A stretch of 64,000 bases of DNA from Hysterangium stoloniferum. Its lineage: Eukaryota; Basidiomycota; Agaricomycetes; Hysterangiales; Hysterangiaceae. How positions within the stretch are numbered: position 1 is the stretch's first letter; each line of letters opens with the position of its first letter. The notes below the pieces were generated by a model. It ran no database searches, was not told the DNA's origin, and saw only the letters and a list, made by a program, of their open reading frames with translations. Of this stretch, positions 1,570-58,640 are shown piece by piece. Made by a program: the position numbers and the translations under genes. Location: positions 496,001 to 560,000 of the forward strand of contig WHVD01000039.1 in the NCBI GenBank assembly GCA_015178975.1, written 5' to 3'.

Positions 1570-4500
1570 TTGGGCCATTGTGATAGTTTTTCGAAGCTCT
1601 TGATGTAGCTTGTCAAGGTTTGTAATGAAATATTGAGTACGGATGGATGTGAGATCATATTCCAGGTGGATTGTGATATTGGGGTTGTAGCCTTTGTTTG
1701 CAAAGAAAGGTGAAATGCCAGTAGTGGCATTTGGTGCATTGTTATATGCGAATTTGGCTAGTGGTAGTAGTGATTTCCAATTATCTTGTCGATAGTTACA
1801 ATAGACACAAATGTACTGTTCTAAGGTTTGATTCATGTATTCAGTTTGCCGTCACCTTCCAGGTAATAGTCCAAAGTGAAGTGTAACTTCATGTCTAGTG
1901 CTTTTCTGAGTGACCTAAAGAAATGAGAGACAAACTCGGATCCATGATCGGATGTGACATGTGACAGAATGCCGTGTTTGGAAAATACATGGGTGATGAA
2001 TAGTTCAGCTAACTGTACAGATGTTATTGTGTTATATGTTGGAATGAAAATACTTTGCTTTGTGAGCCTATCCACAACAACTAGGATTGCTGTATGACCT
2101 TCAGATGCCGGTAGGTGCTCAATGAAATCCATAGAAATTGAGTTCCAGGGTTTTTCCAGTTTTGGTAACTGTTTGAGTAGGCCATATGGTTTGTGTCACT
2201 GTGATTTAGAGCATAAACATGTTGTACAGGATTTGCAATAGTGCTTAATGAAATCTCAGATGCTGGGCCATGTATATTCTCTTCTAATGAGTGCAAGAGT
2301 TTTATTGAGGCCAAAATGTCCCAAGATCAGGTGGTCATGCTTATGCTGTAGAATTCACAGCCAAAGTGTGTCAGAATCCGGTACATAGATGCAGTTGTCA
2401 AGTCTAATGAAACCCTGCAAGTCTAGTGACCATTGAGGTTGATCAGGGTCAGACGGGTTATCGAGGTGTGCTTTGGTGACTGGGTCTAATGGAATTGCCA
2501 ATAGTATGTCTTGATGTAACTTTTTGGCATCGATAAGGATAACACTTTGCAAGACTGAATGAATGAGGTAAGTGGCTCGGATAGATGCGGACAGTTGTTC
2601 AGTTGAAAACATAGGCTTAAAGTTATATGGATTAACTGTGGTGTAGTCGCTACTCCCCTCTTTAGGATAGACATCCCATTGACTAGTCATAGCGTCAGGT
2701 TTCCCACCAAGGCAGCCAGGATGGAAGCAGATTACCATATTAAAGGCGGAGAGGTATTCAGACCATTGGGCTTGCCGACAGGTGAGTAGTTTTGTGGTTG
2801 AAAAGTAAACCAAATTCTTGTGGTCAGTTATAACATCTATTGGATGAGCCAATCCTTCCAGATAATGTCACCATGTCTTGAAAGCTTCAAATATTGCGAG
2901 TAGTTCCTTATCATGAACATCATAGTTGAGTTCAGGTGCCGAAAAGGTGTGAGACAAGAAGGCTACTGGGTGGACTTCACCGTCGGTGTCCAGAATGGAC
3001 AATATCGCAGTAAGTGCATAATCCAAGGTGTCAGTTTCCACAATGAGTTGAACATCGGGCTTCCAGTGCAACAAAATAGGGGCAGATGTAAATGCACTTT
3101 TCAATTCTCAGAATGCCATGCAGCATTCTTCAGAGAAATTCCACAGGGCATCTTTACAAGTAAGATGAGTAAGTGGAATGGTAATTTTTGAGTAATTGTG
3201 AATGAAACAACAATAAAAATTGGTGAAGCCTAAAAAGGACTGAATGTCCTTAACCTTTCAGGGTTCCGGCCAATCTTGAATGACTTGAATTTTAGAGTCA
3301 TCCATGCAGAGACCATCGGGTCCCATCATGAAACCTAAATATTCAACTGTGTTGACATCAAATGAACATTTTTTACCATTCGCAAAAAGACCATGTTTTC
3401 AGAGTCTTCAGAGAACTTCACAGACATGTTCGTTATGAAGTGTAGGATCTTTGGAAAATATGAGGATGTCATCTAAGTACATAATGACATAGATGTCGAG
3501 GAGGTTGGAAAAGACATTGTTGATAAAATGTTGAAAGACCAACAGAGTGTTGGTGAGGCCAAAAGGCATCACTAACCATTTGAAGGAGCCATAGTGAGTG
3601 CGAAAAGCTGTTTTCCACTTGTCACCTTCAGCGATCTGAACCAAATGATAGGCATGTTTGAGATCTATCTTTGTATAAATTTGGGCCTTCTGAGGGGCAT
3701 TGAGTAAATCGGAGATTAGTGGTAATGGGTACTTATCTTTCCGAGTGATCACATTTAGTTGTGGTATTTTTTTTGGAACACCTTCCAAATCTGCAATTGG
3801 TTTGGCCACTGGGGTTGTGAAATGACTGGTAGCTTCGTCAACTTTAAGATTGACTGTAAATGCTCGGGAGCCTTCCAATTTGATGGCTCTCATAAAGGCT
3901 GTGGCATTTATTAGAGAGATGGGAGGTGGAGAGCTCAGATTTGCCACAGGGGCTGGAGGTGCCATAGACAAAACAGGTAGAAACAGACCAGTTGTATTGG
4001 GCACTGACAGGGTTTGGAAATGGATACTGTCCAATACCCAATCAATCAACAGATTGTAGCGGGTGAGCCAGTTATGTCCTAGAACCATGGAGCAGCTCGA
4101 GTCCAACTGTGTTACAAAAAATGTAACTGTCTGAAAGGTTCCAGATGGAAACCAAAGTTGGAGTTTGCAAGCTTGCAAGATTACAGAGTTTGAGGTACCA
4201 TCAAAAAGTCAGAGTGGAATCGGATCTATTGCATAGGTTTTTAACTGATGTTTTCAGGAAAAACTTATATCTATAAAACAATGGGTTGAACCTGAATATA
4301 CGAGAGCTCAAAAAATAAGACTCCCAAAGGGTTCCAATGTGAGATTTATAAACGATGAATTTGGATCATACAGGGTGGATACATTAAGATGACAATTTTC
4401 TGGTGTGTGGGGAGATTCAACACAACTCTCCAACTGCATGGAATCCAGAGAGTTGCTTAATCTTTTTTTGACTCAGCAGCCGGCTTAGCCAGTTGTGAAG

Positions 4501-6067
4501 TCGTAGCTGTATTGGCCAATCAGGCTTTTGTGGCCTTTGGGCATGTGGCGACTCGGTGTCAGGGATCTGTGCACAACAAACAAAGGTTGTTGTTCATTTG
4601 GCATTGCTTTTCTTGTGGTAGGAGCTTGCCGTTGGAGCTGAGTTTGCCAGTAAGGTCAGGTTTGTCCTTGTCTTGAGACTTATTCAACTGTTTGCCCTTG
4701 CCTTTTTTGTCATTAGAACCCTTGTTGTCGGACTTCTTATCGGAGTTCGAGTTGCTGTTATTGTTGGTGTTTTGATTACCAGACTTGTTGGAATTCTTGT
4801 TGTCTAATGATTTTTTGTCTGATGGGTTTTTGCAACTGATTTCTGAGCATCGTTCCCAGTATTGGGCATCCATGTTTTGGACCTTTAGATGCATCAGGGA
4901 GAGAGTCTTCGGTTTGCCAGTCTCTCCTTTGGAAACTTCATCTGAGTAAAACTGGTAACGGAGGGCCGAATCACCCCAGTTGCATTGCACGGCAAGGTTG
5001 TTGAACTGGATGATGTAGTCGGTGATGCATTGGGTGTCTTTCATTTTGAGATTAGAAAGTGCAGTCTCAGCATTGCTGGTTTGGTCGTAGGGGCCGAATT
5101 TTGTTTTGAGTTCCTCAACAAAAGCATCCCAATCATGGAGCCAATCAGGATCTTCAGAAGTGAGGCTGGAAAATACGGGTTCAAACCAGGCTGCTGTGGA
5201 ATCCTTGAGGTAAGAAAGTGCTAAGTTTACCTTTTGGTCATCCATTGTGAAGGCAGCTGGTCAATCCCAAAAATTGAATCGACATTGCATAAGAAATGTT
5301 GGTAATTTCTTCGGGTTTGAGCCAGTAAATGGTTTGGGTTTATTGACTCAGGTTTGCCCAGGTTCCTTTTCCTTGGTATTGTTCTTAAGGAAATTGTTAA
5401 GGGAACTTAAGGTACCTGAGAACAATTCCCATGTTTTGTTGGGAGAGAAATCTGGTTTTTGTTTTGCAGAACTTCATAGGACCACTAGCCTGAGGTAAGT
5501 AAGGACTGGTTGCTCTCCTTGGGTTTGGGTCCCAGAGCTGACTGATTGTTAGCTTCTTCAGGTGCTTCAGGTTTGGTGGCTTTGGTAACTTCTTCAGCAT
5601 TGCTGGTAATTTCCACAAAGTGGGATTCTTCAGAGGGTTCTGGTTGTGGGGTTTTTGGAGTAGCTTGGACTGTATACAGGAATGGAGATCTGAGAGTGGA
5701 AGATTCTGCTTCGCCGCTTGGCTTAGCATCCTTCTTCCTCAGAGGCATGATTGATGGAAAATGCGAGTGTGAAATCAATTATACTGTTAAGAACAGAAAA
5801 CTGACTGATGCCGGTCAGTAGGCCGATGGGGACCAAATGAAAGGACTTGGCTTCAGCTTTATGTGCTGCGCCCTTGCAAGTTACCATTGGGTGTCCTTGA
5901 ATTTTGGGTGGGCAAAAACTAGTCCTATCGAATTCCTCATGGTGAGTTACCGATCAGAAACCAAAGGATAAGTTGAGTGTCAGGCCGAGGAGTCAGAGAC
6001 TGAGGGTGGGCGAGCACACGCAGAGGTGGGGAGCAGGATACTTAGAGTAAGGCTCATGAGAGATGTA

Positions 6068-16248: not shown

Positions 16249-16867
16249 ATGGACGACGACCCACGGTCGTGCCAGCCTCAAATAGAATTTCCCACGATTA
16301 CGGATGAAATTCAAGATCGTAGCAAGGGGGGACGCTCTATCAAAAGGCCTTATCATCGTTTAACAACATGGTTTATCATCCAATGCATTGCCAAGAAGGC
16401 AAAACGGCGACATACGACACAGATAGAACTTCTCACCGTCGCACTCGCCAGTCTCAATGTGATCATGTACTTCTTGTGGTGGAACAAACCGTTGAACATT
16501 CGATGCTCAGTGCCGGTTCATATACGAAAGACACATAAATCCTATCAAATTTGACGGATCCCCAGATACCGGCAAGCTATCAAATTCTACACTCACCAGG
16601 AAAAGGCCCACATGCGAGTTCTTTAGCTACATCATTGACAACATTGGTCAAGAATAGTTGGATCGAGGTTCTGGGACGCCGTTCGCGCTATTGGTGTAGG
16701 ATTGAGATATACAGCTTATGACCTTTGAAGGCGCTCGATTACACCTCGGTTCATCAATCCATTTAAAATCTTAATCCTTAATCAACTGGACACTGTCTGC
16801 TTTCAAAGCTATTTGTATCGAGGCAATGACTTGGCGTTGTCAGGGCGAGGCGGACCCCTCGTAGATG

Positions 16868-16995
16868 TGTTAGTTTGAGTAATGCTAGCAGTGCTTCCCA
16901 GGGTCAGGTGGTGTAATGGTTAACACCCCTGCTATATATGCAGAAGCCCTGGGTTCAATCCCCAGTCTGGCCATTCATTTTCTACACTTTTAACA
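16868..16995 (+). repeat. LTR 1 of the TRIM-like element
   Basis: 128 bp, identical to 17151-17278 base for base. The ends TGTTA and TAACA form a short inverted repeat. Confidence 0.9.
16902..16973 (+). other. tRNA-like cloverleaf in LTR 1
   Basis: 72 nt fold as acceptor 7 bp (GGTCAGG with TCTGGCC, G-T pairs included), D arm (GTG/CAC), anticodon stem CCTGC/GCAGA with a C-A mismatch, 4-nt variable loop and a perfect T arm (CTGGG TTCAATC CCCAG). The A box is TGGTGTAATGG and the B box GGTTCAATCC. The anticodon loop TATATAT has A instead of the invariant T at position 33, so decoding function is unlikely. A Pol III promoter role is plausible. Confidence 0.75.
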
Positions 16996-17150
16996 GGTTA
17001 TGGGCCCCGCTGTGTGCTATAGGGCATGGTTCCTGTGTGTAGAGTGAACAGCTATATTTGTGTGTGGTATAGTGGACAAGTCTGGACAAAAGAGCCAGAG
17101 AGGACCTATATCTGCTTATAGTATAGTTGAGTGCTAGCATTAAGGGAGTG

Positions 17151-17278
17151 TGTTAGTTTGAGTAATGCTAGCAGTGCTTCCCAGGGTCAGGTGGTGTAAT
17201 GGTTAACACCCCTGCTATATATGCAGAAGCCCTGGGTTCAATCCCCAGTCTGGCCATTCATTTTCTACACTTTTAACA
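17151..17278 (+). repeat. LTR 2 of the TRIM-like element
   Basis: 128 bp, identical to the first copy and followed directly by the AGATG target duplication. Confidence 0.9.
17185..17256 (+). other. tRNA-like cloverleaf in LTR 2
   Basis: Identical copy, 283 bp downstream of the first. It has the same folded arms, A box and B box, and the same atypical anticodon loop. Confidence 0.75.
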
Positions 17279-17660
17279 AGATGGATAGATGCGGGTTCCT
17301 TCATTCTACGCCCTTTCAACATATAGCCTGGATAAAAATACACACCCGCTCTCACCAGTTCTCGGAACAGTATTTGGAGCCATTCATTGCGTTGGTTGGT
17401 TTTACACATTCCCGACATACACAGAGGCGCGCTTTTGGTGCGTCTGCTCCCTCACCCTTCTGGTGACTACCGTCCCAGCCCTTTGCTCTATTCTTGTTGG
17501 AATTTTGAGCGCATGCGAAGATACAGATGATTACGGGCTTTATATGGCGTTAATAATTGCTACTATCACGGTATATTTCCTAGTACGACTTGCTTTACTA
17601 GTAGAGGCAGTCATCTCGCTTAGAGCCCTACCCACCAAAGCATGCGCGAATGTAGAATAG

Positions 17661-20600: not shown

Positions 20601-20711
20601 GCCTGGTGGTTATTTTTATTTATTTAATTGAATATATACACAAAAAACAAACGCTAGAGGACCCATTTTCAAATTGCAAGTTGGGTGCCCATTGCACAAA
20701 CGTCGCCCAGC
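17661..20711. other. Gene-poor stretch
   Basis: Apart from the IMPDH 3' fragment near 18097-18205, no gene, RNA or mobile element was recognised. The open stretches are short and without motif. The text around 19960-20100 and 20300-20640 is AT-rich with no clear feature. Confidence 0.4.
18097..18205 (+). pseudogene. Fragment of the IMPDH 3' end
   Basis: The segment with AGTTGAGGACTACAAGTGT, GGTCGAAGGTGGGGTGCACG and TTTGTGAGTTTACC parallels the last long exon and the start of the last intron of the IMPDH locus (14306-14405). It includes intron sequence, so it was copied as DNA and not through mRNA. About 80-85 percent alike by eye. Confidence 0.7.
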
Positions 20712-23238
20712 ATGCAATCATTGTACATAAGCGTATGGCTGCTTGCGATCCTCTGTGTTCAGGCACGACAAATCACGCCGGCGCAGATGAAAGCTCGCCA
20801 GCATCAAGCACTAGAGGCAAGACGATCTGCCCTATTATCCTCGAAATTGGAGACACTCGCAACGACACCGAATGCCAAGCCGGCCCCGGGTCCCAAGAAT
20901 ATTACGTTTTCGAATCCGAAGGCTTCCGGTATGAGAGACGTAGCACATATCTTCCGGATGTATCCTCAGGATTAGCATGTAGAATTTTTCGTCGATGGTA
21001 CATCCATTCCGGAGGTGAATTTCGACGTCGGACCAAGTTGGGCAGGTTTGCTGCCTATCAGCAATGCCACTGACGAGACTCGCAAGGTGAGCATCCTCTA
21101 TCCGCACATTGCATCCAGGGTATGTGCTTAAAGCCACCGAAGCTCTTCTTCTGGTTCTTCCCTCCCGGTCCTCAAGGAAGTCTTGACGACCTAATTTTCT
21201 GGTGAGGCTGCTCTTCAAATATAACATGAAATAGAGTCACTGGAATTAATGATATCTTGTCAAAAGGACAAACGGCGGGCCTGGCTGGTTTGTTTTCCCA
21301 TTCTCCCATGAGCTTCGTAACTTATACACGGACACTCAGCTCATCGCTGGAAGGCCTCCTCCAAGAGAATGGCGTAGGTCTGCTTGCATTACAGGCCAAT
21401 CAAATATTAATTGTGCCCCTACATGGGCTTTTTTCAACAGCCCTTCAGTTGGGCACCTGGAACTGCGGTTCCGATTGTTAATGACTTCAGCTGGACAAAC
21501 CTTAGTAGTGTTATTTGGATTGAACAACCAGTTGGAACAGGGTTCAGTCAAGGAACGCCCAATATCAGGGTGCGTTGTGTATTGTAACTTGCTGTCGGTG
21601 CTTCTGACGTTGATTGACCAAAGAATGAAGACGACTTGGCGGTTCAGCTTGTTGGATTTCTACAGCAATTTTTAGAGGTTTTCTCTGAGCTGAAGGGAAA
21701 GAAGTTTTATATTACTGGGGAAAGCGTGGGTTTTGGACGTTCGCGAGTATAATGGAGGCTAATACAACAATTGCTCTCAGTATGCAGGAACTTACGTGCC
21801 GTGTGAGTCTATAATATTTCCTGATTTTCTCGTCCTCATTATCCTCTCCATTAGACATTGCCAATCATATTTTTGAAAATCCTGGAATAGTCGATCTTGA
21901 CCTGCAAGGGATTTGGATTAGTGATCGTCAGTATACATGTCATCCTGCCTTATTCAAGTTAACCGTACTAATCCTAAGCTATCCTAAGCTTCTTTGTCAT
22001 GGGACGTTGTGCAGGAACAGATCCCCGCCGTCAACTTCGTAAGTGTCGGGTCAAATTTCTTACTTAAAAAAAAAGGCCTTGACTTGTTTTAGGTGAATAA
22101 ATACGAAAATGTCTTCGCATTCAAGTAAGTGGCATAGAGTTCCCCTGACATATGTATAATTACAATTGACTGTCCGGAAGTGAATCATTCAAAGCCGAAT
22201 TGCAAACCATTGCTGAGGGGTGCAACTACGCAGATTACTTCGAAAAGCACGTCACGTACCCGCCGACAGGTATTCTCCCTCTTCCTGGTAAATCCGTCAA
22301 CGCCGACCACGGGTGTGACGTTTGGGACCTTATCTTTGATGCTGCCTTGATCATCAACCCCGCATTTGACATTTATCGTATATACGATACCTTCCCGATC
22401 TTGTGGGACGTTCTAGGGTTCCCAGGCTCCTTCCCGAATGTGCAGCTGTCCCCGTTGTATTTCGATCGACAGGATGTGAAGACGGCCATACATGCGCCAT
22501 TGGATGTAGACTGGGAAGAGTGCTCGAACATTAATGTGTTCCCTCATGGCGACGGGTCTCTCCACTCCGCTCTCACCGTTCTCCCAAATGTCATAGAAAA
22601 ATCAAACAGGAGCGTCATCGTCCATGGTCTCGCAGTAAGTCGTTTTCTTGCAAGATGAGGATTTGGTAGTATTAAGTATTATTTTAGGATTTTATTTTGA
22701 TTGCTGAAGGGTACGTGGAAGAATCCTACCATACGTTGATTATTCGCTGATAAATATCTACTCTCTTCAAGAACCCGTATTGTAATCCAAAAGTAAGACG
22801 AACGTATATGCTAAGTGCTTATTATTGACATGGCGCTTCTTTTCTCTAGCATGACATGTTCGTTTAGTTCATTCCCTGTGTGTCTATTGTTCTTTTGCAT
22901 AACTAACTCCGAATTGCTCAGGGAATGGAATGCAAGGATTCCAAACACCTATCGCCAATGATAGTTTCCTCGTTGATGGCATTGGTGCTCTCGGGAACAT
23001 GCACCAAGAACGCGGTATGAGATACTACCAATAACTATTTTTGAATTTGTTTTTTTAATACCACCCTGAAGGTTTAACGTATTTTGAAGTCTCTCTAAGT
23101 GGACATATGTGGGTTTCCCCCTATTTCTCGTGGATGATGTTTGTCTCATGTCTTTTCTATATCAGGGTACCCCAGTTCCAGCCCCATGCTGCCTTCCAGA
23201 TCATGCAGTATTTGATGGGATTCAGAGCAAATCCATGA
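20712..23238 (+). CDS. Secreted serine carboxypeptidase, family S10 (copy 1)
   Basis: It removes C-terminal residues from peptides and is probably secreted or vacuolar. The ATG at 20712 opens a signal peptide (MQSLYISVWLLAILCVQA). By comparison with copy 2 the gene has 18 exons with consistent GT..AG borders, giving about 519 residues. Examples: exon 1 20712-20928, exon 2 20983-21086, the large exon 22181-22634, the 8-nt exon 22860-22867, and last codon CCA then TGA at 23236-23238. Conserved blocks: GGPGCSSLEG (split by an intron), WIEQPVGTGFS, the nucleophile serine in GESYAG (about residue 225), ISDPSLSWDVV, the aspartate in HGLADFILIAEG (about 436) and the histidine in GHMVPQFQP (about 495). 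It looks intact. One donor site is GTTTGT, weaker than GTGAGT in copy 2. The similarity to copy 2 extends into both flanks. Confidence 0.88.
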
Positions 23239-23299
23239 CCCTTTGCATGAACGTGTGTTATTTTGTTGAACTATATGGTACCAGACGGCACGAAATTTA

Positions 23300-23557
23300 G
23301 TTAACTCACCTGGAAGAACCACTAGCTAGATCCCTGTGCATTATGTTATATAATCAAGCTATCTGTCAGCAAAGAATTACTATCCATCGAAAATGGATTT
23401 GCTGGGAAAAAAGAAAAGAGAAAAGGAGAAAAAACAACACTCGTGCTGTCTAAGTCGGAATCAGACACCAGAATTTCATGTAATTCCACTTTGTGTGACC
23501 TGAATGTCCATTATTTGTAAGATTTTTGTAAAATATAAATTTAATTTGCCAAAGTTC
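23300..23557. other. 3' flank of S10 copy 1
   Basis: The first 150 bp still resemble the 3' flank of S10 copy 2 (near 56340-56470), showing that the duplication reached past the stop codon. The rest is AT-rich and featureless up to the copia-type element. Confidence 0.5.
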
Positions 23558-25779: not shown

Positions 25780-26120
25780 CCTAACAGATATGTTCTCAAG
25801 GCCATCCCTTCATGTTCCAGTGGTCCCCACTAAGTTCAACCTGCCCCCTCTGTTTTCTATGCTAACAGACTCTTTTCTGAGGCTGCCATCACATTTTCCA
25901 GGTTTCTCAGTGCATCCAAACTATATCCCTTCTTCCTAATCTAACACATGCATTCTCAAGGCCATCCCTTTGTGTTCCAGTGGTACCCAGTAAGTTCAAC
26001 CCACTCCCTCTGTTTTCTATGCTAATATACTCTTTTCTGAGGCTATCATCATGTTTTCCAGGTTTCACAGTGCATCCAAACTGTGTCCCTTCTCTCCCTA
26101 ATCTAACACATGTCTGCAAG
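25780..26120 (+). repeat. Tandem duplication, 160-bp period
   Basis: The stretch from TTCTCAAGGCCATCCC (25793) through CTCTGTTTTCTATGCTAA to AATCTAACACATG recurs 160 bp downstream (25953). A partial third start is visible at about 26111. It lies inside the left arm of the Harbinger element. Confidence 0.8.
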
Positions 26121-27282: not shown

Positions 27283-27440
27283 AGACACACATGGGTGTTG
27301 CACAGCAGGACACACATAGGCATTTCACAGCAGGACACACATGGTCATTGCACAGCAGGACACACATGGGTATTGCATAGCAGGACACACATGGGCATTG
27401 CACAGCAGGACCACATAGGTGTTGCACAGCAGGACACCAA
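27283..27440 (+). repeat. 24-bp minisatellite
   Basis: Six to seven copies of a 24-bp unit like GGACACACATGGGTGTTGCA followed by CAGCA, with small differences; one unit is 23 bp. It lies at the 3' end of the Harbinger transposase and adds repeated Cys/Val/Met-rich sense (such as CVSCCAM) to the frame. Confidence 0.88.
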
Positions 27441-29526: not shown

Positions 29527-32500
29527 CAAAATAATAATTGACTTAATCCTCTTTTTTTTTTTGGCGTGAAATGAACTTGAAAAGCATCGGATAGTGAGAC
29601 TTGATAACCCAAGTTCGGCTTGAGGTTTGAGGATTGGAAAATGTCGGGTGCTGTGTGAAAACTAAAGAGAGTCTAAAGGACCAGGTTTGTTTGGGTATGC
29701 TTGATGGAAACCTAACACAATTTCTGACGCATTGCCAAGTTTGGTGGCTAGGATCCAGGAAGTTTCTTCATCTGTACCTTCATAGCCAGTCCATTTGACC
29801 AAATAAAGTAACTTGCACGATCACCTGCGATTGTCGATCTTGGAGTCTAGGATTTCCGATATTTCAAATTCGGGTTCTCCGTTGATAATTACGGGTGGTG
29901 GTGGTGGTTGTATGCACTCTGGTATAGTGTTAGTAACGCATGGTTCTAACATAGATATGTGGAACACTGGGTGGACTGCATACATGTTGTCGGGAAGCCA
30001 AAGCATCCACAAAAGTGTGCCCGCTTGTGCTATGACTTCAAAAGGACCTAAATACTTTTCAGAGAGATTTTTAGAAGGTCTAGTGGTTCGGAAAAACTCG
30101 GCTTTGACGAATACTCGATCACCAATTTTAAAATTGGGAGATGGGAGCCGATTTTTATCCACGGACCGTTGGTATCGCTCTTGGGCCATTGCGATCGTTT
30201 TCCGAAGTTCTTGATGTAGCTCGTCTAGATTAGTAATGAAGTCTTGAGCATGGGTGGATGCAAGATCGCGTTCCGGGTGGATAGCGATATTCGGGTTGTA
30301 GCCTTTGTTTGCGAAGAAAGGTGAAATGCCAGTAGTGGCGTTTGGGGCGTCGTTGTATGTGAATTCGGCTAGCGGTAGTAACAATTTCCAATTGTCTTGT
30401 TGATAATTGCAATAGATACAAATGTATTGTTCCAAAGTTTGGTTCATGCGTTCGGTTTGGCCGTCACCTTCCGGGTGGTAACCCAAAGTGAAATGCAGTT
30501 TCATGTCTAACGCTTTTCCAAGTGACCTAAAGAAATGAGAGACAAACTTGGAACTGCGATCGGATGTGACATGCGACAGGACGCCGTGCTTTGAAAACAC
30601 ATGGGTGATGAATAGTTCAGCCAACTGTACAGACGTTATTGTATCATAAGTTGGAATGAAAATGCTTTGCTTTGAGAGCCGATCCACAACAACTAGGATT
30701 GCTGTATGACCTTCGGATGCCAGTAGGTGCTCGATGAAATCTATAGAAATTGAGTTCCAGGGTTTTTCCGGTATCGGTAATTGTTTGAGTAGGCCATATG
30801 GTTTGTGTCGCTGTGATTTAGAGTGTAAACAAGTTGTACAAGATTTACAATAGTGCTTAACGAAAACTCGGAGGCCGGGCCAAGTATATTGTCTGCGAAT
30901 GAGTGCGAGAGTCTTGTTGAGGCCGAAGTGTCCCGAGATTGGGTGGTCATGTTTATGTTGTAGGATTTGCAGCCGAAGGGTGTCAGAATCCGGTACATAA
31001 ATGCGATTGTCAAGTCTAATGAAACCTTGTGCATCTAGCGACCATCGGGGTTGATTGGGGTTGGATGGATTATCAAGGTGTGCTTTGGTGACTGGGTCTA
31101 ATGGAGTTGCCAATAGTATATCTTGATGTAACTTTTCGGTATCCATAAGGATAACACTGCACATGACTGGATGTATGAGGTAAGTCGCTCGGATTGATGT
31201 AGACAGTTGTTCCGATGAAAACATAGGCTTAAAGTTATGCAGATTAACTGTGGCGTAATCGCTACTCCCCTGTTTAGGGTAGACGTCCCATCGTCTAGTC
31301 ATAGCGTCAGGTTTCCCGCCAAGGCAGCCGGGGTGGAAACAGATAATCATATTGAAGGTGGAAAGGTATTCGGATCATCAGGCTTGCTGACGGGTGAGTA
31401 GGTTTGTGGTTGAAAAGTAAACCAAGTTTTTATGGTCAGTTATAACATCTGTCGGGTGAGCCGACCCTTCCAAATAATGTCTCCATGTCTTGAAAGCTTC
31501 AAATATTACGAGTAGTTCTTTATCGTGAACATTGTAATTGAGTTCGGGTGCTGAGAATGTATGAGACAAAAAAGCTACTGGGTGGACTTCACTGTCGGTG
31601 TCCAGAATGGACAATATCGCAGCGAGTGCATAATCTGAGGCATCAGTTTCCACAATGAGTTGAACATCGGGTTTCCAGTGTGACAATATAGGGGCAGACG
31701 TGAACACACTTTTCAATTCTTGGAATGCCGATCGGCATTCTTTGGAGAAGTTCCACGGGGTGTCTTTACGAGTAAGATGGGTGAGCAGAACGGTAATTTT
31801 TGAGTAGTTGTGAATGAAATGACGTGAAAAATTAGCGAAACCTAATAAAAAGGACTGAATGTCTTTGACTTTTTGGGGCTCCGGCCAATCTTGAATGACT
31901 TGAATTTTAGAATTGTCCATGCGGAGACCATCGGGTCCCATCATGAAGCCTAAATATTCAACTGTGTTGACATCAAAAAAACATTTTTTACCATTTGCAA
32001 AAAGACCATGTTTTCAGAGTCTTCGGAGAACTTCACGGACGTGTTCATTGTGAAGTGTAGGGTCTTCAAAGAATATGAGGATATTGTCTAAGTACACAAT
32101 GATGTAGACGTCGAGGAGGTTGGAAAAGACATCGTTGATAAACATTGAAAAACCGATGGAGCGTTGGTAAGGCCGAAAGGCATCACTAACCATTCAAAGG
32201 AGCCATAGTGAGTGCGAAAAGCCGTTTTCCATTCGTCGCCTTCGGCGATCCAAACCAAATGATAGGCATGTTTGAGGTCTATCTTTGTATAAATTCGGGC
32301 CTTCCGAGGGGCATTGAGTAAATCGGAGATTAGAGGTAACGGGTACTTATCTTTTCAAGTGATCGCATTTAGTCCTCGAAAGTCAATGCAAAGCTGAAGG
32401 GAACCATCTTTTTTCTGAACGAACAGGACAGGGGCTCCATAAGGAGATTTTGAGGGTCAGATAAATCCTATAGCCAAATGTTCATCCAAGAAATCTCGGA

Positions 32501-34677
32501 TAGCCGATAACTCAGACTGCGAGAGAGGATAAACTGGCCCTAAGGGTGGATGTGAACCTTCTTCAATATCAATTTTCAAATTGTAGGGCCTATGAGGGGC
32601 AAGACAATCAGCTTTTTGTTTATTGAAGACGTCAGCAAAATCGTGGTATTTTTCTGGAACACCTTCCAAATCTGTAACAGGTTCAGTTACCGGAGTCGCA
32701 ATGCAACTGGTAACTTCATCAACTTTGAGTTTGATGGAAAATGCTCGGGAACCTTCCAACTTGATGGCTCTCATAAAAGCTGCGGCATTTATTAGAGAGA
32801 CGGAGGGTGGAGAGCTTGGATTTGCCATGGGGGCCGGAGGTGCAGTAAAGGCCATATTTGCCGATATGGGCGGAGACGGAGCAGTTGTATTGGGTGCCAG
32901 CAGGGTTTGGAATTGGATACTGCCCAATACCCAATCAATCAATGGATTGTAACGGGTGAGCCAGTTATGTCCTAAAACCACGGAGCAGCTCGAGTCCAAC
33001 TGTGTTATGAAAAATGTAATGGATTGAAAAGTTCCACAAGGGAACCAAATTCGGAGTTTGCAGGCTTGCGAGATTACAGAGTTTGAGGTACCATCGAAAA
33101 GTCAGAGCGGAATCGGATCTATTGCATAGGTGTTTAAGGGGTTTTTTCGGGAGAAATTTTTATCTATAAAACAATGGGTTGAACCTGAATCTACAAGAGC
33201 TCGAAAAACGAGGCTCCTGAGGGGTTCCGAAGTAGTAAGATTTACAAATAAGGCATTCAGATCATGAAGTGCAGACACGTTAAGATGACAACTTTCTGGT
33301 GTGCGGGGAGATTTAACGCAACTCTCTAACTGCATGGAATCCAGAGAGTTGCTTAATCTTTTTTTGATTCGGCAGCTGGCTTGGCCAGTTGCGAAGTTGA
33401 GGCTGTATTGGCCAATCGGGCATTTGTGGCTTTTGGGCATGCAGCAACTCGGTGTCCGGGATCTGTGCATAACAAGCACAGATTGTTGTCCATTCGGCAT
33501 TGCTTTTCCTGTGGTAGAAGCTTGCCATCGGGGCCGAGTTTGCCAGTAAGGTCAGGTTTGTCTTGAGACTTCCTCGACTGTTTGCCTTTGCCTTTTTTGT
33601 CATTAGGCCCTTTGTTTTCAGACTTCTTATCGGAGTTTGAGTTGCCACTGTTGTTAGTGTTTTGATTACCAGACTTGTTGGCATTCTTATTGTCCAATGA
33701 TTTCTTGTCCGAGGGGTTTTCGCGACTAATTTCCGAATGTCGTTCCCAGTATCAGGCATCCATGTTTTGGGCTTTTAGGCGCATGAGGGGGAGAGTCTTC
33801 GGCTTGCTGGTCTCTCCCTTGGAAACCTCATATTTGAGGTGAGACGGAAGGCCAGAGTAAAACTGGTAACGGAGGGCCGAATCACCCCAGTCGCAATGCG
33901 CGGCGAGGTTGTTGAACTGGACGATGTAATCGGTGATGTGCTGGGTGTCTTTCATTTTGAGATTAGAAAGCACAGTCTCGGCATCACCGATCTGATTGTA
34001 AGGGCCAAAGTTTGTTTCGAGTTCTTCAATGAAAGCATCCCAATCATGAAGCCAATCAGGATCTTCCAAGGTGAGGCTGGAGAATGCGGGTTCGAACCAG
34101 GCTGCTGCAGAATCCTTGAGGTAAGAGAGTGTGAAGTTTACCTTTCAGTCATCTGTCACAAAGGCAGCTGGGCAGTCCCAAAAGTTGAATTGACATTGCA
34201 TAAGAAATGTCAGCAATTTCTTTGGGTTTGAACCGGTAAACAGTTCAGGTTTGCCCAGGTTCTTTTTCCTTTGTATTGTTTTTAAGGAATTCATTAAGGG
34301 ATCCTAGGGTACCTGAGAACAATTCCCATGTTTCATCGGGATCAAGAGCCGGTTTGTGTTTTGTGGATTTTTTAGAACCACTGGCCTGAGGTGCTGGTTG
34401 GTCGTTATCCTTGGGTTTGGGTTCCGGAGCTGATTGATTGTTATCCCCTTCAGGTGCTTCGGGTTCAGTTGCTTCAGTAACTTCTTCAGCATCACCGGTA
34501 ATTTCCACAAAGCGGGATTCTTCAGAGGTTCCTGGTTGCGGGGTTCTTGAAATAGCTCGGGCTGTATACAGGAAAGGAGACTTGAGAGTGGAAGATTCTG
34601 CTTCGCCACTTGGCTTGGCATCTTTCTTTCTCAGGGGCATGGTTGACGTGAAATGCAAGTGTGAAATCAGAATATAC

Positions 34678-35322
34678 TGTTAAGAACTGACTGACAGGCT
34701 AAATGCCGGGTAACTGACAGGGGCCGAACGGAAGGACTAGGCTTCAGCTTATGTGCTGTGCCCTCGCAAGTTCACGTTGAGTGTCCTTAGATTTCGGGCA
34801 GGTGAAGGTCGGGGACCAAGGTCGAAGACCAAGGGATACAGATGGCGGGATACTTATAGTAGGGCTAGGGGGATGTTCTGAGTCGATATTCTGATTGCCT
34901 AGTAACTACAACTACAGCGGGTTCATATACAAGTAACAGGCATCTAGAAAATACTAATGGGGAGAAAGGCGGAAGACGGTATTAACAACAAGCTTGACTA
35001 GGAACGGGAAGTTTATGATTAGTTCGGAGGCCGATGATAACTGAGAGTGGGACTATGGTAAAGGAAATAGTTCGAGGGTTACATATATATATAGACATAG
35101 GTGAGACATAGTGTAAAATGGATCATCATAATGGAAAGGGACGTATCAAAGCATAACCAGACAGAAAAGGCGTAGTCGGGTTTGAATAGCTGGGAGGGTA
35201 TACATCAGCGTCGGGATGCTGATGGCGTCCGAGATATCGACCTGATTGAAGACAGAAAAATACTACGACGTTATACCATTGGGGGCCACCGGCTTGCGAG
35301 GGGTCACGACACAGTTGTAACA
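34678..35322 (-). repeat. 5' LTR of element B
   Basis: 645 bp. Compared with the other LTR it has one extra 13-bp stretch (a local duplication around GGTCGAAGACCAAGG) and about 5 percent base differences, nearly all transitions. Followed by CCTGG. Confidence 0.93.
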
Positions 35323-42340: not shown

Positions 42341-43084
42341 TTAAATTTGCCTCCTTCGCTTTGTACTGGACCCACGGCCCTCAAAGTCGGATACCGGACT
42401 TGTTTGACTCCCTTCTTGATGATGCATGCGATCATGATGTTCCCGGTTCTTTTTCTGGACGGGTACGCCAAAGGGGCCACATGTTCCACGCCTGCAAATA
42501 TAGCTTTGATCATGATTATTAATTTGTGAACTGCTGGAGGGTAACGCCACGGGAGTGGAAGAACTTGATGCAGAAAACATCCCCGCGAACGGATTATTGT
42601 TATTCGGTCCGTGACTAGTCTGTATTGTAAAACTGTACGGAGATTGTGCCGGGATGGAGCGAGAGCTCGTCTGAGGCACTGCAGCATTAGCACCCCACTG
42701 ATGAAGATTTGACAGGTCGGTGGAATGTCTGCGTGAACTATCATTGTCATTTTGACCAGTTATGTATCTGTATAAATTCTGATCAGCTTGAACCGCAAGT
42801 GGCCGCCGAGCTTGAGGGGGACCGCGTGCTATACCGGGAGTGGTATGCTGTGGGGAAAGCGAAGGTGATGACGGAGCAGTTCTCTGCATTCGTATATGGC
42901 TGGAAGGATCTTCGAGACCTTGATGAAGGGAGTTTTGATATACACTTCGTTGTTGGTGGTCGACGTCTTCAAAACTCCCTGCGTGATGGTAGGTTGGTTC
43001 CCAGTCCATAAACTGATGGTCTGACTGACCATGCTGGAAATTGGAAGTCTGATTGCCGTCGGGGTAGTAGTGTCGAGTAGTCAT
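42341..43084 (-). CDS. Finger protein 2 with C-X4-C-X14-H-X4-H motif
   Basis: A single exon. I place the start at 43084 (MTTRHYYPDGNQTS) because a TATA box (43139-43146) lies 55 bp upstream, inside a longer in-frame extension that begins at 43240. From 43084 the product has 247 residues, the same length as finger protein 1. Residues 1-190 are Ser/Pro/Gln/His-rich and disordered-looking. The finger is C197, C202, H217, H222 (CRRGTC, then REHHDRMHH), and the C-terminus is basic (STKRRRQI), possibly a nuclear signal. Sequence likeness to finger protein 1 outside the finger is weak. The role is inferred only from the finger. Confidence 0.6.
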   Translation of the reverse strand: MTTRHYYPDGNQTSNFQHGQSDHQFMDWEPTYHHAGSFEDVDHQQRSVYQNSLHQGLEDPSSHIRMQRTAPSSPSLSPQHTTPGIARGPPQARRPLAVQADQNLYRYITGQNDNDSSRRHSTDLSNLHQWGANAAVPQTSSRSIPAQSPYSFTIQTSHGPNNNNPFAGMFSASSSSTPVALPSSSSQINNHDQSYICRRGTCGPFGVPVQKKNREHHDRMHHQEGSQTSPVSDFEGRGSSTKRRRQI

Positions 43085-53160: not shown

Positions 53161-53770
53161 GGTGGACTTGATACATTTACGGCCGTTCTTGTCATCCAGC
53201 GTGTAGTTGTGTTGCTTATATAATGTAAGCAGCAACCCTAGGGGACTCTAGTGGAGGTGACTTGACATTTAGAAATTCACGGAATATTGCAGATATCGTG
53301 CCGCCTTACTGATCATGTGCTCAATATTCCAAAGGATGATCCAAGGCCTTGATTCCGGCGGTGCTGGACCGCATTAGAAATTTATGGAACGTCAGAGCTG
53401 AGGTGCACTATCCGTCCCACTACCGCATATACTCAGCCTACACGGACTGTATTCTACCTTGTTATTCGGGTACTGGAATCATGGTCTCCACTGGATGTAG
53501 TACTGCGGTGGTGAGGTTACATTTTCCGCATGACCGCCACAAACGTGATTTCGTTCCCGAACGAGCCCTTAGTTCCGGCCCTGCGGCTGGCTTGGCTACC
53601 GATCTAACTGGTGGTTGCAATGATGATTTCGGCAAACGCGTTGATTTTTAATGATGTTACCTAGCACTCATTGCTAGGCGGAGGTTTTTTTTTTTTAACC
53701 TAACTGAATATTTATATCGAGGACGAGTCAAGTCGGAAGTGGGTACACATTGCACAGACCACAGTCCAGC

Positions 53771-56293
53771 ATGCTACCATTGTTTGGAATATGGCTGCTT
53801 GCGATCCTCTCTGTCCACGCACGACAAATCGCGCCAGCACAGATGAAAGCTCGCCAATATCAAGCACTACAGGCCAGACGCTCTACTCTGCAATCCCTGA
53901 AATCGGCGACTCTGGTAGCAACACCGAATGCCAAACCAGCTACCCCTCAGGGTCCAAAGAATATCACATTTTTGAACCCGACGGCTTCCGGTATGCGAAA
54001 CGTAGTCGACATCTTCCCGATATATCCTCAGGATTGCATTTAGAATTCTTTGTCGACGGCACATCCATTCCGGAGGTGAATTTCGACGTCGGACCAAGTT
54101 GGGCAGGTTTGCTGCCTATCAGCAACGCCACTGAGGAGACTCGTAAGGTGAGCGTCCCCTGTCTGTACATCGCATTCAGAATATGTGCTTAAAGCCACCA
54201 AAGCTTTTCTTTTGGTTCTTCCCACCCGGTCCTCAAGGAAGTCTTGACGACCTAATTTTCTGGTAAGGCTACTCTTCAAATATAATATGGAATAGAGTTA
54301 ATATAATTGATGATATCCTGTTAAAAGGACAAACGGCGGGCCTGGCTGGTGAGTTTTACCGTCCTACCTAAGCTTCGTGCTTATACACGGATACTCAGTT
54401 CATCGCTGGAAGGCCTCCTCCAAGAGAACGGTGTGAGTACTAGTGTTGAATGCTAATGAACGTTAATTGTACCCTAAATGTGCTGTCTTCGACAGCCCTT
54501 CAGTTGGGCACCTGGAACCGCTCTTCCAATTGTCAATGACTTCAGCTGGACGAATCTTAGTAGTGTGCTTTGGATTGAACAACCGGTTGGAACAGGATTC
54601 AGTCAAGGAGAGCCCAATATCAAGGTGCGTTGTGTATTGCCAGTCGCTGTCGATACTTCTGAACTTGATTGCCCAAAGGATGAGGACGACCTGGCGGTTC
54701 AGCTTGTTGGCTTTCTCCAGCAATTTTTAGAGGTTTTCTCTGAGTTGAAGGGAAAGAAGTTTTATATCACTGGGGAAAGCGTGAGTTTTGGACATTCGTG
54801 AGTATAACTGAGCCTCACATACCAATTGCCTTAGTACGCAGGAAATTACGTGCCGTGTAAGTCTATGGTGTTGTCTAGCTCTCTCGTCCTCTTCACTGTA
54901 TTATCCATTAGACATTGCCAATTATATTTATGAAAATCCTGGAATAGTCGATCTTGCCTTGCAAGGGATTTGGATTAATGATCGTTAGTACACAATCCAT
55001 TAGGCTGTATTCAACTGTACTAATCATAAGTATTGAAGCTTCTCTGTCATGGATGGTTTTGCAGCAACAAATCCCTGCCGTCAACTTCGTGAGTGTCAGG
55101 GGTCAAATACCTTATACAAGCCCTTAACTCGCTTCAGGTAAATAAATACGAAAATGTCTTCGCATTCAAGTAAGTGCATAAGGCTCCCCTTTTGTTCCTG
55201 TCCTGTTCATACTTATAAACTTCCGGCAGCGAATCGTTCAAAGCCGAGTTGCAAACCATCGCAAAACGTTGCAACTATGCCGATTATTTCGAAAAGCATG
55301 TCAAATACCCGCCGACCCAAGGCCTTCTCCCCTTTCCAGGGAAAACCACCGACATCGATCCAGGGTGCGACGTTTGGGCCCTCATCTTTGATGCCGCTTT
55401 GCTCATCAACCCCGCATTTAACATCTATCGCATATTCGATACCTTCCCAATCCTGTGGGACGTTCTAGGGTTCCCAGGGTCGTTCCTAAATGTGCAGCTG
55501 GCCCCGTTGTACTTCGATCGACAGGATGTGAAGGCAGCCATACATGCCCCATTAGATGTAGACTGGAAAGAATGCTCGACCATAGATGTATTCCCTGACG
55601 GTGATCCGTCTCCCAACCCCGCTTTTACCGTTCTTCCGAACGTCATAGAGAAGTCAAAGAGGAGCGTCATTGTCCACGGTCTCGCAGTGAGTTGCTTTCT
55701 TGCGATCATTGATATACTGGTATGAAATGTCGTTGTAGGATTTTATGTATATCGCTGAAGGGTAGGTGGGAAAACTGTACCATGCGTACATTGTTCGCTG
55801 ATAAATATTTGCACTCGTCAAGAACCCGTATTATAATCCAAAAGTAAGACCGAACGTTTACCAAGTGCTTATTATCGACCTGACGCTTCTTTTATCCAGT
55901 ATGACATGTTCGTTATATTTATTTTCATCTCCTATGTGTCTCTTTCCTTTGCATAGCTAACCCCGAATTGTTCAGGGAACGGAAAGCAAGGATTTCAAAC
56001 ACCAATCGCCAAAGATAGCTTCCTCGTTGATGGCATTGGCGCTTTAGGAAACATGCACCAGGAACGCGGTACGAGCTCTTATCAACGATTGGCTGTTAAA
56101 TATTTTTTTTATATCACCCAAAAGGTTTGACGTATATCGAAATTTCTCTCGCGGGACATATGTAAATTTTCTCCAATTTTCTAGTGAATGATATATGTCT
56201 CATGGCTTCTCTAATATCAGGGTACCTCAATTCCAGCCCCAGGCTGCCTTCCAGATCATGCAGTATTTGATGGGCTTCAGAGAAAATCCATAA
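53771..56293 (+). CDS. Secreted serine carboxypeptidase, family S10 (copy 2)
   Basis: 18 exons, all with GT..AG borders: 53771-53990, 54044-54147, 54195-54262, 54328-54348, 54399-54432, 54496-54624, 54679-54780, 54835-54856, 54912-54983, 55039-55088, 55138-55169, 55230-55686, 55739-55761, 55823-55843, 55900-55907, 55976-56068, 56125-56161 and 56221-56293. They total 1566 nt, 521 residues. Signal peptide MLPLFGIWLLAILSVHA. Catalytic triad Ser226 (GESYAG, split after the serine codon), Asp438 (HGLAD) and His497 (GHMVPQ). The oxyanion and substrate region GGPGCSSLEG and the block WIEQPVGTGFS are present. Exon 15 is only 8 nt and supplies the NMT part of QNMTWNG. It is a close paralogue of the gene at 20712 with the same exon plan. 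It likely degrades extracellular peptides. Looks intact. Confidence 0.92.
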
Positions 56294-56299
56294 ATCTTT

Positions 56300-58640
56300 G
56301 CATATATTTTTCTTATTTTGTAGAACTTTATGATACGAGATGTTCAGCGGCACGAAGTGGTTAACTCAACCGGCAGAACCACTGGACCTTTGTCCATGGG
56401 GTTGCATGATCGAGCTATTTGTCAGCGAAGAATTAATCATGGATCGGAAATGGATTTGTGAACAAAAGCATTCGGACCGTCCGAATGGGAATCTGGGGTT
56501 GAGTTATAAATCGAGATTTCATATTATCTCCAAGAACGACATGTATGCTTTGCTAAAGGGAGTGGCATCATTGCACTATATTTCTAATCAAAAAATATCA
56601 TTCGACATCTTCAGCCAGTCAGTTATTTGCATTCAATCCAAGTCATCTGTCCGTGTTTTTTTTTGACGCAATAAGGTGGTAGGATGTTATTTATCTACAA
56701 GCGACTTCCATGCAGACGCAGTCATCCCCCATTTTATAATTACCCGCCTCTTGCGGTGTTGCTGAAAATATTCATAGTCCACTCCTCGTCTTCGCTACAC
56801 ACTCTCATTTCCTTTGGCACAACGGGTGTTTGAAAGCAATGACATCGTGTTTGTAGAAAGGGCCGGCTCGTATGCGACTACTTTTGCTTGATCGATAGAT
56901 GCTGAGACCAAGTTCGTTTGTTGGCGAATTCCACCATTGTAATCCTGACCGTATTACCACTTTGACCCCGATGCCAATCGCTCTATTATTACCTCCCGAT
57001 CATCCCCCCATTGCTAGACCGACCCAAACGAGATCTATCATTTACCTCTCCGCCCCGATCTCTCCCTTGTCTCCCATCGTTATCCCTCAAACCTTATTAC
57101 CACCCCATTGTTAATTGTGGATATAGAGGAGCACGGATATATATACATAAACTACCTACCGACTTCTCTGTATCTAGATACTTCCCTTGCGATCAACAAC
57201 AGAACATTGTCCTGTCTGTATCGACTGAGTGAGGTTGATACAACAACCTTTCAACCATACACGCTTTCGCATCTCCTAAAGGGCTAGTATACCAGCAGTA
57301 TTTACCCCCGCCCCTTCCAACTCAACTGTGTTGTAAAGCACTGGCATGGAAATGGGGTTAATTTATACGGTAATATCCTCATTATCATTATTTTGTAAAA
57401 GCGTCACAGGCTGGGAGACAGAGACTTGGTGGATAGAATTGGGCATTGCAGCCGCAGCAGACGTCAGGGTTTTATGGCGAGCGTAAAAGTGTGTATATAT
57501 ACCACGGCTCAGAATATATACCAGTTTTTGGTTTGCAATACCATATACGCGTTCATGCATCATGCTACGAACACATCAATTGAATCAACGCACTACAACG
57601 CCACAGTTGGATGCTAACATCATCTAAAGTGGATTGCACTTATTGCGGAGAGATCGACAACGCCGTCGGCTGAGATTCCTCTTAGTTCGTTTAAGTTGGC
57701 GCAACGGTTCTACTCCATGATAGGAACAGCGTGTATTTGGGATAGCGACAAAAACTATAATAGGGCAAGAATTTGCCCAAACTATGTACATGAGCTATTC
57801 AGCACAATGGCGTGTACAAAGCAACGGAACATACCCCAGTGGCTCCCCAAGACTGGAAATAGAACGACTGAAGTAACATGCTCAAAATTTTTAGTATATA
57901 TATAAGGCGGGGTAGAGGCTGTGCTCGATGTTCGCAATACGAGGCAGCGGCCTCTAAACTGGCTCATCCACTGCTATGTTTTGTCAGATAGATGCCACTC
58001 TACTCAAGCGGACGCGAATTTGATAATTGAAAATTCATGTAAAGTACTGCTATCGTGCCGCCTTACGGAAGCCTGTACTACATGTCCTAAAGGAGCCGAG
58101 GTCTCGGTTTCCCGCCTGATCCCCAAACCTTGTGGGACAGTGCCGAACAGCATTAATTATGGACAGAATTGAGTATAGCTACTGTGAGTCTTTCTCTCCA
58201 CATTATCTCTCGCAATTGTAACCTTGGCCTCGCTCATTAAGGAAATCCATCCCTCCGATTGTTATAACGTTCCAGCCCCCGAGGGCCGTCTGTCTGGTTG
58301 CCAACCAACACTTCAACCAAAACTTAAAAGCACAGCAATGAAATGGAAATATACCTATTTCATGCCACCATTTTGTATGGGCGGTGCCCGGGCGTAACAG
58401 ATGCAGTCAGATCACATGCATCGTTTGCCCCGCCCGCCGTTTCCAAAAATATGTATCGAGACCCAGGACTTAGCTTGAGGGCGAGATACTAAATAATACA
58501 GCAAGCTGGAACGGTCGTGACCATTAAGCTACGAGTAAGAGAATTTGATTCTAAAGTGTGTGAAGCATTCTTCACATCTAATTGAAGTAATAGTAACAAC
58601 TATTCCTCTTGATGTCTCTCAAATGCCAGCAGCCAGGGGG
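56300..58640. other. Gene-poor stretch
   Basis: The first about 170 bp are the 3' flank shared with S10 copy 1. No gene recognised in the remainder. A CCCC/TTACC-rich segment lies at 56950-57110, and short motif-free open stretches occur on both strands. Confidence 0.4.

What the first reader, a model, noticed from the sequence alone, without database searches (positions are those of the whole stretch)
16863..17283. Miniature LTR element whose LTRs each contain a complete tRNA-like cloverleaf
Seen: two identical 128-bp TG..CA direct repeats, a 155-bp non-coding interior, AGATG duplication at both sides, and in each repeat a 72-nt cloverleaf with good A and B boxes but an abnormal anticodon loop (no T33). 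Known: plant Cassandra TRIMs carry 5S rRNA and Pol III promoter sequence in their LTRs. Inference: this fungal element may use a tRNA-derived Pol III promoter in its LTR, a parallel solution from a different RNA gene. The identical LTRs mean it moved recently.
Basis: partly seen in the sequence, partly recalled or inferred. Interest (0 to 1): 0.82.

Follow-up and report, generated by a model that had tools for sequence, protein, structure and literature searches.

The report
Tiny retrotransposon with tRNA-like ends
A 411-base mobile element, probably from a fungus, carries a tRNA-like sequence in both of its end repeats; this kind of element was described in 2024 under the name Helenus, so it is a real but already recognised kind of genome parasite.

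Summary
Two identical 128-bp TG..CA repeats (16868-16995, 17151-17278) flank a 155-bp non-coding interior; the whole is bracketed by AGATG; each repeat holds a 72-nt cloverleaf (Rfam tRNA, 46.8 bits, E 7.4e-07) with A instead of T at position 33. So it is a TRIM (miniature LTR retrotransposon), not a local duplication of a tRNA relic. The idea of a tRNA-based parallel to Cassandra is already in print: Kojima 2024 (PMC10886601) names TRIMs with tRNA-like LTRs 'Helenus', with 113 families in rust fungi, 5-bp duplications in fungi, and priming mostly from the initiator-Met anticodon loop. This locus meets the points that could be tested, apart from a slightly different box A. It is a new member of a known kind, or even a catalogued family (Repbase and the paper's supplement could not be consulted). 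Pol III use remains inferred. No host genome was held, so copies could not be sought.

The parts
16863..16867 (.). left target-site duplication AGATG
   Evidence: identical to 17279-17283
16868..16995 (+). 5' LTR, 128 bp, TGTTAG...TTAACA
   Evidence: identical to 17151-17278; exact repeat of 130 nt including the TG before it
16902..16973 (+). tRNA-like cloverleaf in the 5' LTR (anticodon position TAT, A33, no intron)
16909..16919 (+). A-box-like TGGTGTAATGG
   Evidence: pattern match; function inferred
16952..16962 (+). B box GGTTCAATCCC
   Evidence: pattern match; function inferred
16978..16991 (+). two TTTT runs (16978 and 16988) downstream of the tRNA-like part: candidate weak Pol III terminators; same in the 3' LTR at 17261 and 17271
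   Evidence: function inferred
16996..17012 (+). primer-binding site GGTTATGGGCCCCGCTG, directly at the LTR junction; the reverse complement of its core, GGGCCCATAACC, carries the CAT anticodon of initiator tRNA-Met (tRNA arm recalled, length of the match therefore approximate)
   Evidence: the 12-base core is the only match in the window with up to 1 mismatch (mean 0.23 in 100 shuffles; 22 of the 100 had at least one); the iMet anticodon-loop PBS type is described in PMC10886601 section 3.6
16996..17150 (+). non-coding interior, 155 bp, no TTTT
17142..17148 (+). polypurine tract AAGGGAG, 2 nt before the 3' LTR
   Evidence: two other purine runs of 7-8 nt lie further inside the interior, so its identity rests on its place
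17151..17278 (+). 3' LTR, 128 bp
17185..17256 (+). tRNA-like cloverleaf in the 3' LTR
17279..17283 (.). right target-site duplication AGATG

Best explanation
It is a Helenus-type TRIM: a non-autonomous LTR retrotransposon of 411 bp. [quoted passage not shown] the RNA starts near 16900, reads through the short TTTT runs of the 5' LTR part of the time, and ends at the same runs in the 3' LTR, so the tRNA-like part plus the stretch up to the T run forms the terminal R repeat (inferred). A cut initiator tRNA-Met primes minus-strand synthesis at the PBS through its anticodon arm (site shown, use inferred), the AAGGGAG tract primes the plus strand (site shown, use inferred), and the reverse transcriptase and integrase of an autonomous Copia element supplied in trans insert the DNA with a 5-bp duplication (duplication shown, partner inferred from the literature). 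The confidence given is for the class, a Helenus-type TRIM; the Pol II rival below disputes only the transcription step.
For: Identical LTRs, TG..CA ends and 5-bp TSD; tRNA covariance match in each LTR with 0 tRNAs in 20 shuffled windows; PBS core exactly at the LTR junction; PPT 2 nt before the 3' LTR; no coding capacity. These match the published description of fungal Helenus: tRNA-like LTRs, PBS and PPT, 5-bp TSDs, PBS mostly of the initiator-Met anticodon-loop type, length 311-1263 bp, proposed Copia dependence.
Against: Only one copy is seen: none elsewhere in the window, and no exact match in five pattern scans of virus and prokaryote collections, where none would be expected for a eukaryote. 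No Copia protein domain turned up in the 30 reading frames scanned, a small part of the window's 235 frames of 70 codons or more, so no partner is shown. The absence of TTTT in the interior is expected by chance: 1795 of 2000 interior shuffles and 5983 of 12769 window stretches of that length also lack it. The A box (TGGTG) departs from the TRGCY that most Helenus carry. TTTT runs in the 5' LTR could stop Pol III before it reaches the interior.
Confidence: 0.93

Rival explanations
1. Same kind of element, other transcription: the tRNA-like sequence is a passenger or a decaying remnant of a SINE insertion in the LTR, and the element is transcribed by Pol II, for example from the TATATAT that sits in the anticodon-loop position.
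For: TATATAT at 16933 and 17216; position 33 is not T, so the RNA is unlikely to work as a tRNA; TTTT runs in the 5' LTR could hinder Pol III.
Against: Box B, an A-box-like motif and the whole cloverleaf are kept; [quoted passage not shown]
Confidence: 0.15
2. A local duplication: a tRNA pseudogene in a 128-bp unit duplicated with a 155-bp spacer.
For: Only one locus is visible.
Against: TG..CA ends, a 5-bp duplication outside both repeats, a primer-binding site directly at the left junction and a purine tract at the right one are not expected from a duplication.
Confidence: 0.02
3. Two functional tRNA-Ile(TAT) genes, as ARAGORN calls them.
For: ARAGORN call and Rfam score.
Against: The loop has A33 instead of the near-universal T33 (recalled rule) and the anticodon stem has a C-A mismatch at its top; both copies lie inside LTRs.
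Confidence: 0.02

Closest known systems
Helenus (TRIMp3), fungal families; Kojima 2024, PMC10886601
   Same: tRNA-like sequence in both LTRs, short non-coding interior, PBS of the anticodon-loop type, PPT, 5-bp TSD, size within 311-1263 bp
   Different: box A reads TGGTG where most Helenus have TRGCY; identity with any of the catalogued families could not be tested
Cassandra (plant TRIM with 5S rRNA in its LTRs)
   Same: TRIM with a Pol III gene promoter inside the LTR
   Different: 5S rRNA instead of tRNA; land plants; 565-860 bp (facts as given in PMC10886601)
SMARTs and other TRIMs without a Pol III gene
   Same: very small, non-coding, LTRs with PBS and PPT, moved in trans (as given in PMC10886601)
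   Different: no small-RNA gene in the LTR
tRNA-derived SINEs (SINE2)
   Same: tRNA-derived promoter in a short non-coding element
   Different: SINEs are moved by non-LTR retrotransposons and have no LTRs, PBS or PPT (recalled)

Membership tests
Helenus (PMC10886601) | TRIM-sized element (the paper's first screen: shorter than 1000 bp; its families span 311-1263 bp) | tested here: met
   128 + 155 + 128 = 411 bp; definition
Helenus (PMC10886601) | tRNA-derived sequence inside the LTRs | tested here: met
   Rfam tRNA 46.8 bits in each LTR; ARAGORN
Helenus (PMC10886601) | PBS and PPT between the LTRs | tested here: met
   PBS 16996-17012 and AAGGGAG 17142-17148; the iMet arm it is matched to is recalled, not fetched
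Helenus (PMC10886601) | 5-bp TSD in fungi | tested here: met
   AGATG on both sides
Helenus (PMC10886601) | box A TRGCY and YGG (most families) and box B GGTTC | tested here: inconclusive
   GGTTC present; box A is TGGTGTAATGG, so YGG is met but TRGCY is not; the paper says most, not all
Helenus (PMC10886601) | dispersed family of copies and solo LTRs in the genome | not testable with these tools
   host genome not held; no other copy in the 64-kb window
Helenus (PMC10886601) | sequence match to a catalogued Helenus consensus | not testable with these tools
   Repbase not available; look-ups in supplementary files are capped at 0
Cassandra | 5S rRNA-derived sequence in the LTR | tested here: not met
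   Rfam finds tRNA in the LTRs and no 5S rRNA in the window, also at E up to 5
functional tRNA gene | T33 and a normal anticodon arm | tested here: not met
   A33 and a C-A mismatch at the top of the stem

The most novel reading that the evidence does not exclude
A so far uncatalogued Helenus family whose RNA uses the whole tRNA-like part as its R repeat, with leaky TTTT runs letting Pol III pass the 5' LTR and stop in the 3' LTR. This would explain how one and the same LTR can both start and end a Pol III transcript.
Probability: 0.25. Interest if true: 0.4.

Novelty: new member of a known kind. Interest (0 to 1): 0.22.

Why it matters
It is a clean, young-looking example of a known but little studied kind of element. 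Such LTRs inflate tRNA gene counts in fungal genomes: in Table 2 of PMC10886601, 481 of 492 predicted tRNA-Thr-AGT genes of Puccinia triticina are Helenus copies. Here ARAGORN and Rfam likewise call a tRNA in each of the two LTRs. The element also makes a concrete test case for whether Helenus is really transcribed by Pol III, which the paper leaves open.

Tried and rejected
Rejected: local duplication of a tRNA relic (PBS, PPT and TSD argue against it); functional tRNA genes (A33, stem mismatch); the tRNA-like part serving as the element's own primer (best local match between it and the reverse complement of the first 20 interior bases is 4 nt, G-U pairs not counted; PMC10886601 reports no complementarity for Helenus). 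An apparent partial repeat of the LTR start inside the interior (17124-17139) is not better than chance: 231 of 1000 shuffles reach its score. The lack of TTTT in the interior is not informative.

Led nowhere: four exact-pattern scans of viral contigs, one of genome contigs and one distant search of the phage records gave 0 matches. These are collections of viruses, prokaryotes and phages, so this is no evidence that the element is single-copy. A search of viral contigs with the window's Gypsy integrase ORF, made to find contigs from the same organism, gave 2 pattern matches and 0 confirmed relatives. Host naming: the IMPDH exon at 13228-13932 matches PDB chain 4af0 best (E 1e-110), which I recall as Cryptococcus (a basidiomycete); few fungi are in the PDB, so this and the 44.7% GC fit a basidiomycete such as a rust but do not name the host. 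The kinase and Pdx2 pieces gave no help with the host.

Full report
Observation. The two 128-bp repeats at 16868-16995 and 17151-17278 are identical; the repeat finder reports 130 identical bases because a TG precedes both copies. With the 128-bp boundary the element is flanked by AGATG at 16863-16867 and 17279-17283 and has TGTTA...TAACA ends; with 130 bp the duplication would shrink to AGA. I take the first boundary as the better one. The interior is 155 bp and the whole element 411 bp, with no stop-free run above 56 codons in six frames.

tRNA-like part. ARAGORN and Rfam both place a tRNA at 16902-16973 and 17185-17256 (46.8 bits, gathering score 29, E 7.4e-07). ARAGORN finds 0 in 20 shuffled windows. 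Acceptor and T stems are complete, with two G-T wobbles in the acceptor stem; the D stem is four pairs; the anticodon stem has four pairs and a C-A mismatch at its top; the loop is TATATAT, giving A at position 33. So it is a well-kept cloverleaf that is unlikely to work in translation. Box B GGTTCAATCCC and an A-box-like TGGTGTAATGG are present; the A-box pattern also hits twice in the interior. Folding is moderately better than shuffles (z -2.18, 7 of 200 as stable).

Directly at the end of the 5' LTR the interior begins GGTTATGGGCCCCGCTG. Its reverse complement contains GGGCCCATAACC, the anticodon stem-loop of initiator tRNA-Met around the CAT anticodon (recalled). The 12-base core occurs once in the window with up to one mismatch allowed, without mismatch and exactly at the junction; 100 shuffles give a mean of 0.23 such matches anywhere in the window, 22 of them at least one. 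Priming at the anticodon loop is reported for Copia-superfamily elements (PMC10886601 section 3.6). The interior ends with AAGGGAG two bases before the 3' LTR, the place of a polypurine tract; two other purine runs of 7-8 nt lie inside the interior. With the 5-bp TSD these parts make the element a retrotransposed LTR element and not a tandem duplication.

Comparison. PMC10886601 (Kojima 2024) was seen as outline and abstract, parts 1 to 4 of 6 of its full text, the legends and tables, and one word search; its supplement was not seen. It names TRIMs with tRNA-derived LTR sequences Helenus; reports 113 families from Pucciniales and some from Agaricomycetes; gives 5-bp TSDs for the fungal ones, with PBSs mostly complementary to a tRNA anticodon loop, that of initiator Met being the dominant type, and similarity to Copia elements at the PBS; and gives lengths of 311-1263 bp. 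It proposes the Pol III promoter role by analogy with Cassandra and says that this needs experimental validation. The element here meets these points where they could be tested. One mild departure is box A, TGGTG in place of TRGCY. Paper searches: (126 papers, 20 listed) led to this paper; three narrower searches held 1, 1 and 2 papers, in each case this paper, plus one that, by its title and the start of its abstract, is on another subject; (64 papers, 8 listed) was on Cassandra and listed it again. No second paper on tRNA-bearing TRIMs appeared in these listings; unlisted papers were not seen.

Mechanism. Shown: LTRs, TSD, PBS-like and PPT-like sites in their right places, cloverleaf. Inferred: Pol III start near 16900, RNA ending in the 3' LTR, priming by a cut initiator tRNA, and Copia proteins in trans. 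A tension is noted: TTTT at 16978 and 16988 lies behind the tRNA-like part of the 5' LTR, so Pol III must read through these runs at least part of the time to make a full-length RNA. Runs of four T are weak terminators in yeasts (recalled), so leaky read-through is plausible. The interior has no TTTT, but this is what chance gives (1795 of 2000 shuffles). In the paper's main text the word search found termination mentioned only for Cassandra's transcript (two occurrences of 'terminat'). A Pol II start from the TATATAT in the loop position is the main rival for this step.

Surroundings. The window is rich in repeats: the self-comparison shows repeat pairs of 69-96% identity besides this element. 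Gypsy-type gag (4559-5245), reverse transcriptase (3408-4178), RNase H (31378-31944) and integrase (29821-31350) pieces are present on the - strand. Gene pieces seen are IMPDH, a STE20-like kinase and a Pdx2-type amidotransferase, and, below Pfam's cut-offs, carboxypeptidase-like and F-box-like pieces. No Copia domain was seen in the 30 reading frames scanned. The IMPDH exon is closest to PDB 4af0, which I recall as a basidiomycete enzyme. The host is thus likely a basidiomycete; the species is unknown.

Limits. The host genome is not held, so copy number, solo LTRs, empty sites, the Copia partner and the parent tRNA could not be tested. Exact-pattern scans of viral and prokaryote collections were empty, as expected for a eukaryote.

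Verdict. Real and correctly read, but already described as a class. New member of a known kind, perhaps an already catalogued family. Interest is low to moderate.

Noticed in passing
window 1570-5908 and 30181-34798: Two related Gypsy-type LTR retrotransposon stretches, 86% identical over one aligned part and 81% over the next; gag and reverse transcriptase were seen in the first, RNase H and integrase in or beside the second.
   Followed up: partly
window 20669-23401 and 53728-56458: A 2.7-kb pair at 81% identity with a serine carboxypeptidase match below Pfam's cut-off in both copies; may be a gene pair or part of a larger repeat.
   Followed up: partly
window 25793-26112: Tandem pair of a 160-bp unit, 88% matches.
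   Followed up: no
window 27284-27437: 25-bp minisatellite, about 6 copies.
   Followed up: no
window 16933-16939 and 17216-17222: The anticodon-loop position reads TATATAT, which could also serve as a TATA box for Pol II.
   Followed up: no
window 42925-42982: A short stretch matches a microRNA precursor model on both strands at E about 0.5, far below the gathering score; probably chance or an inverted repeat.
   Followed up: no
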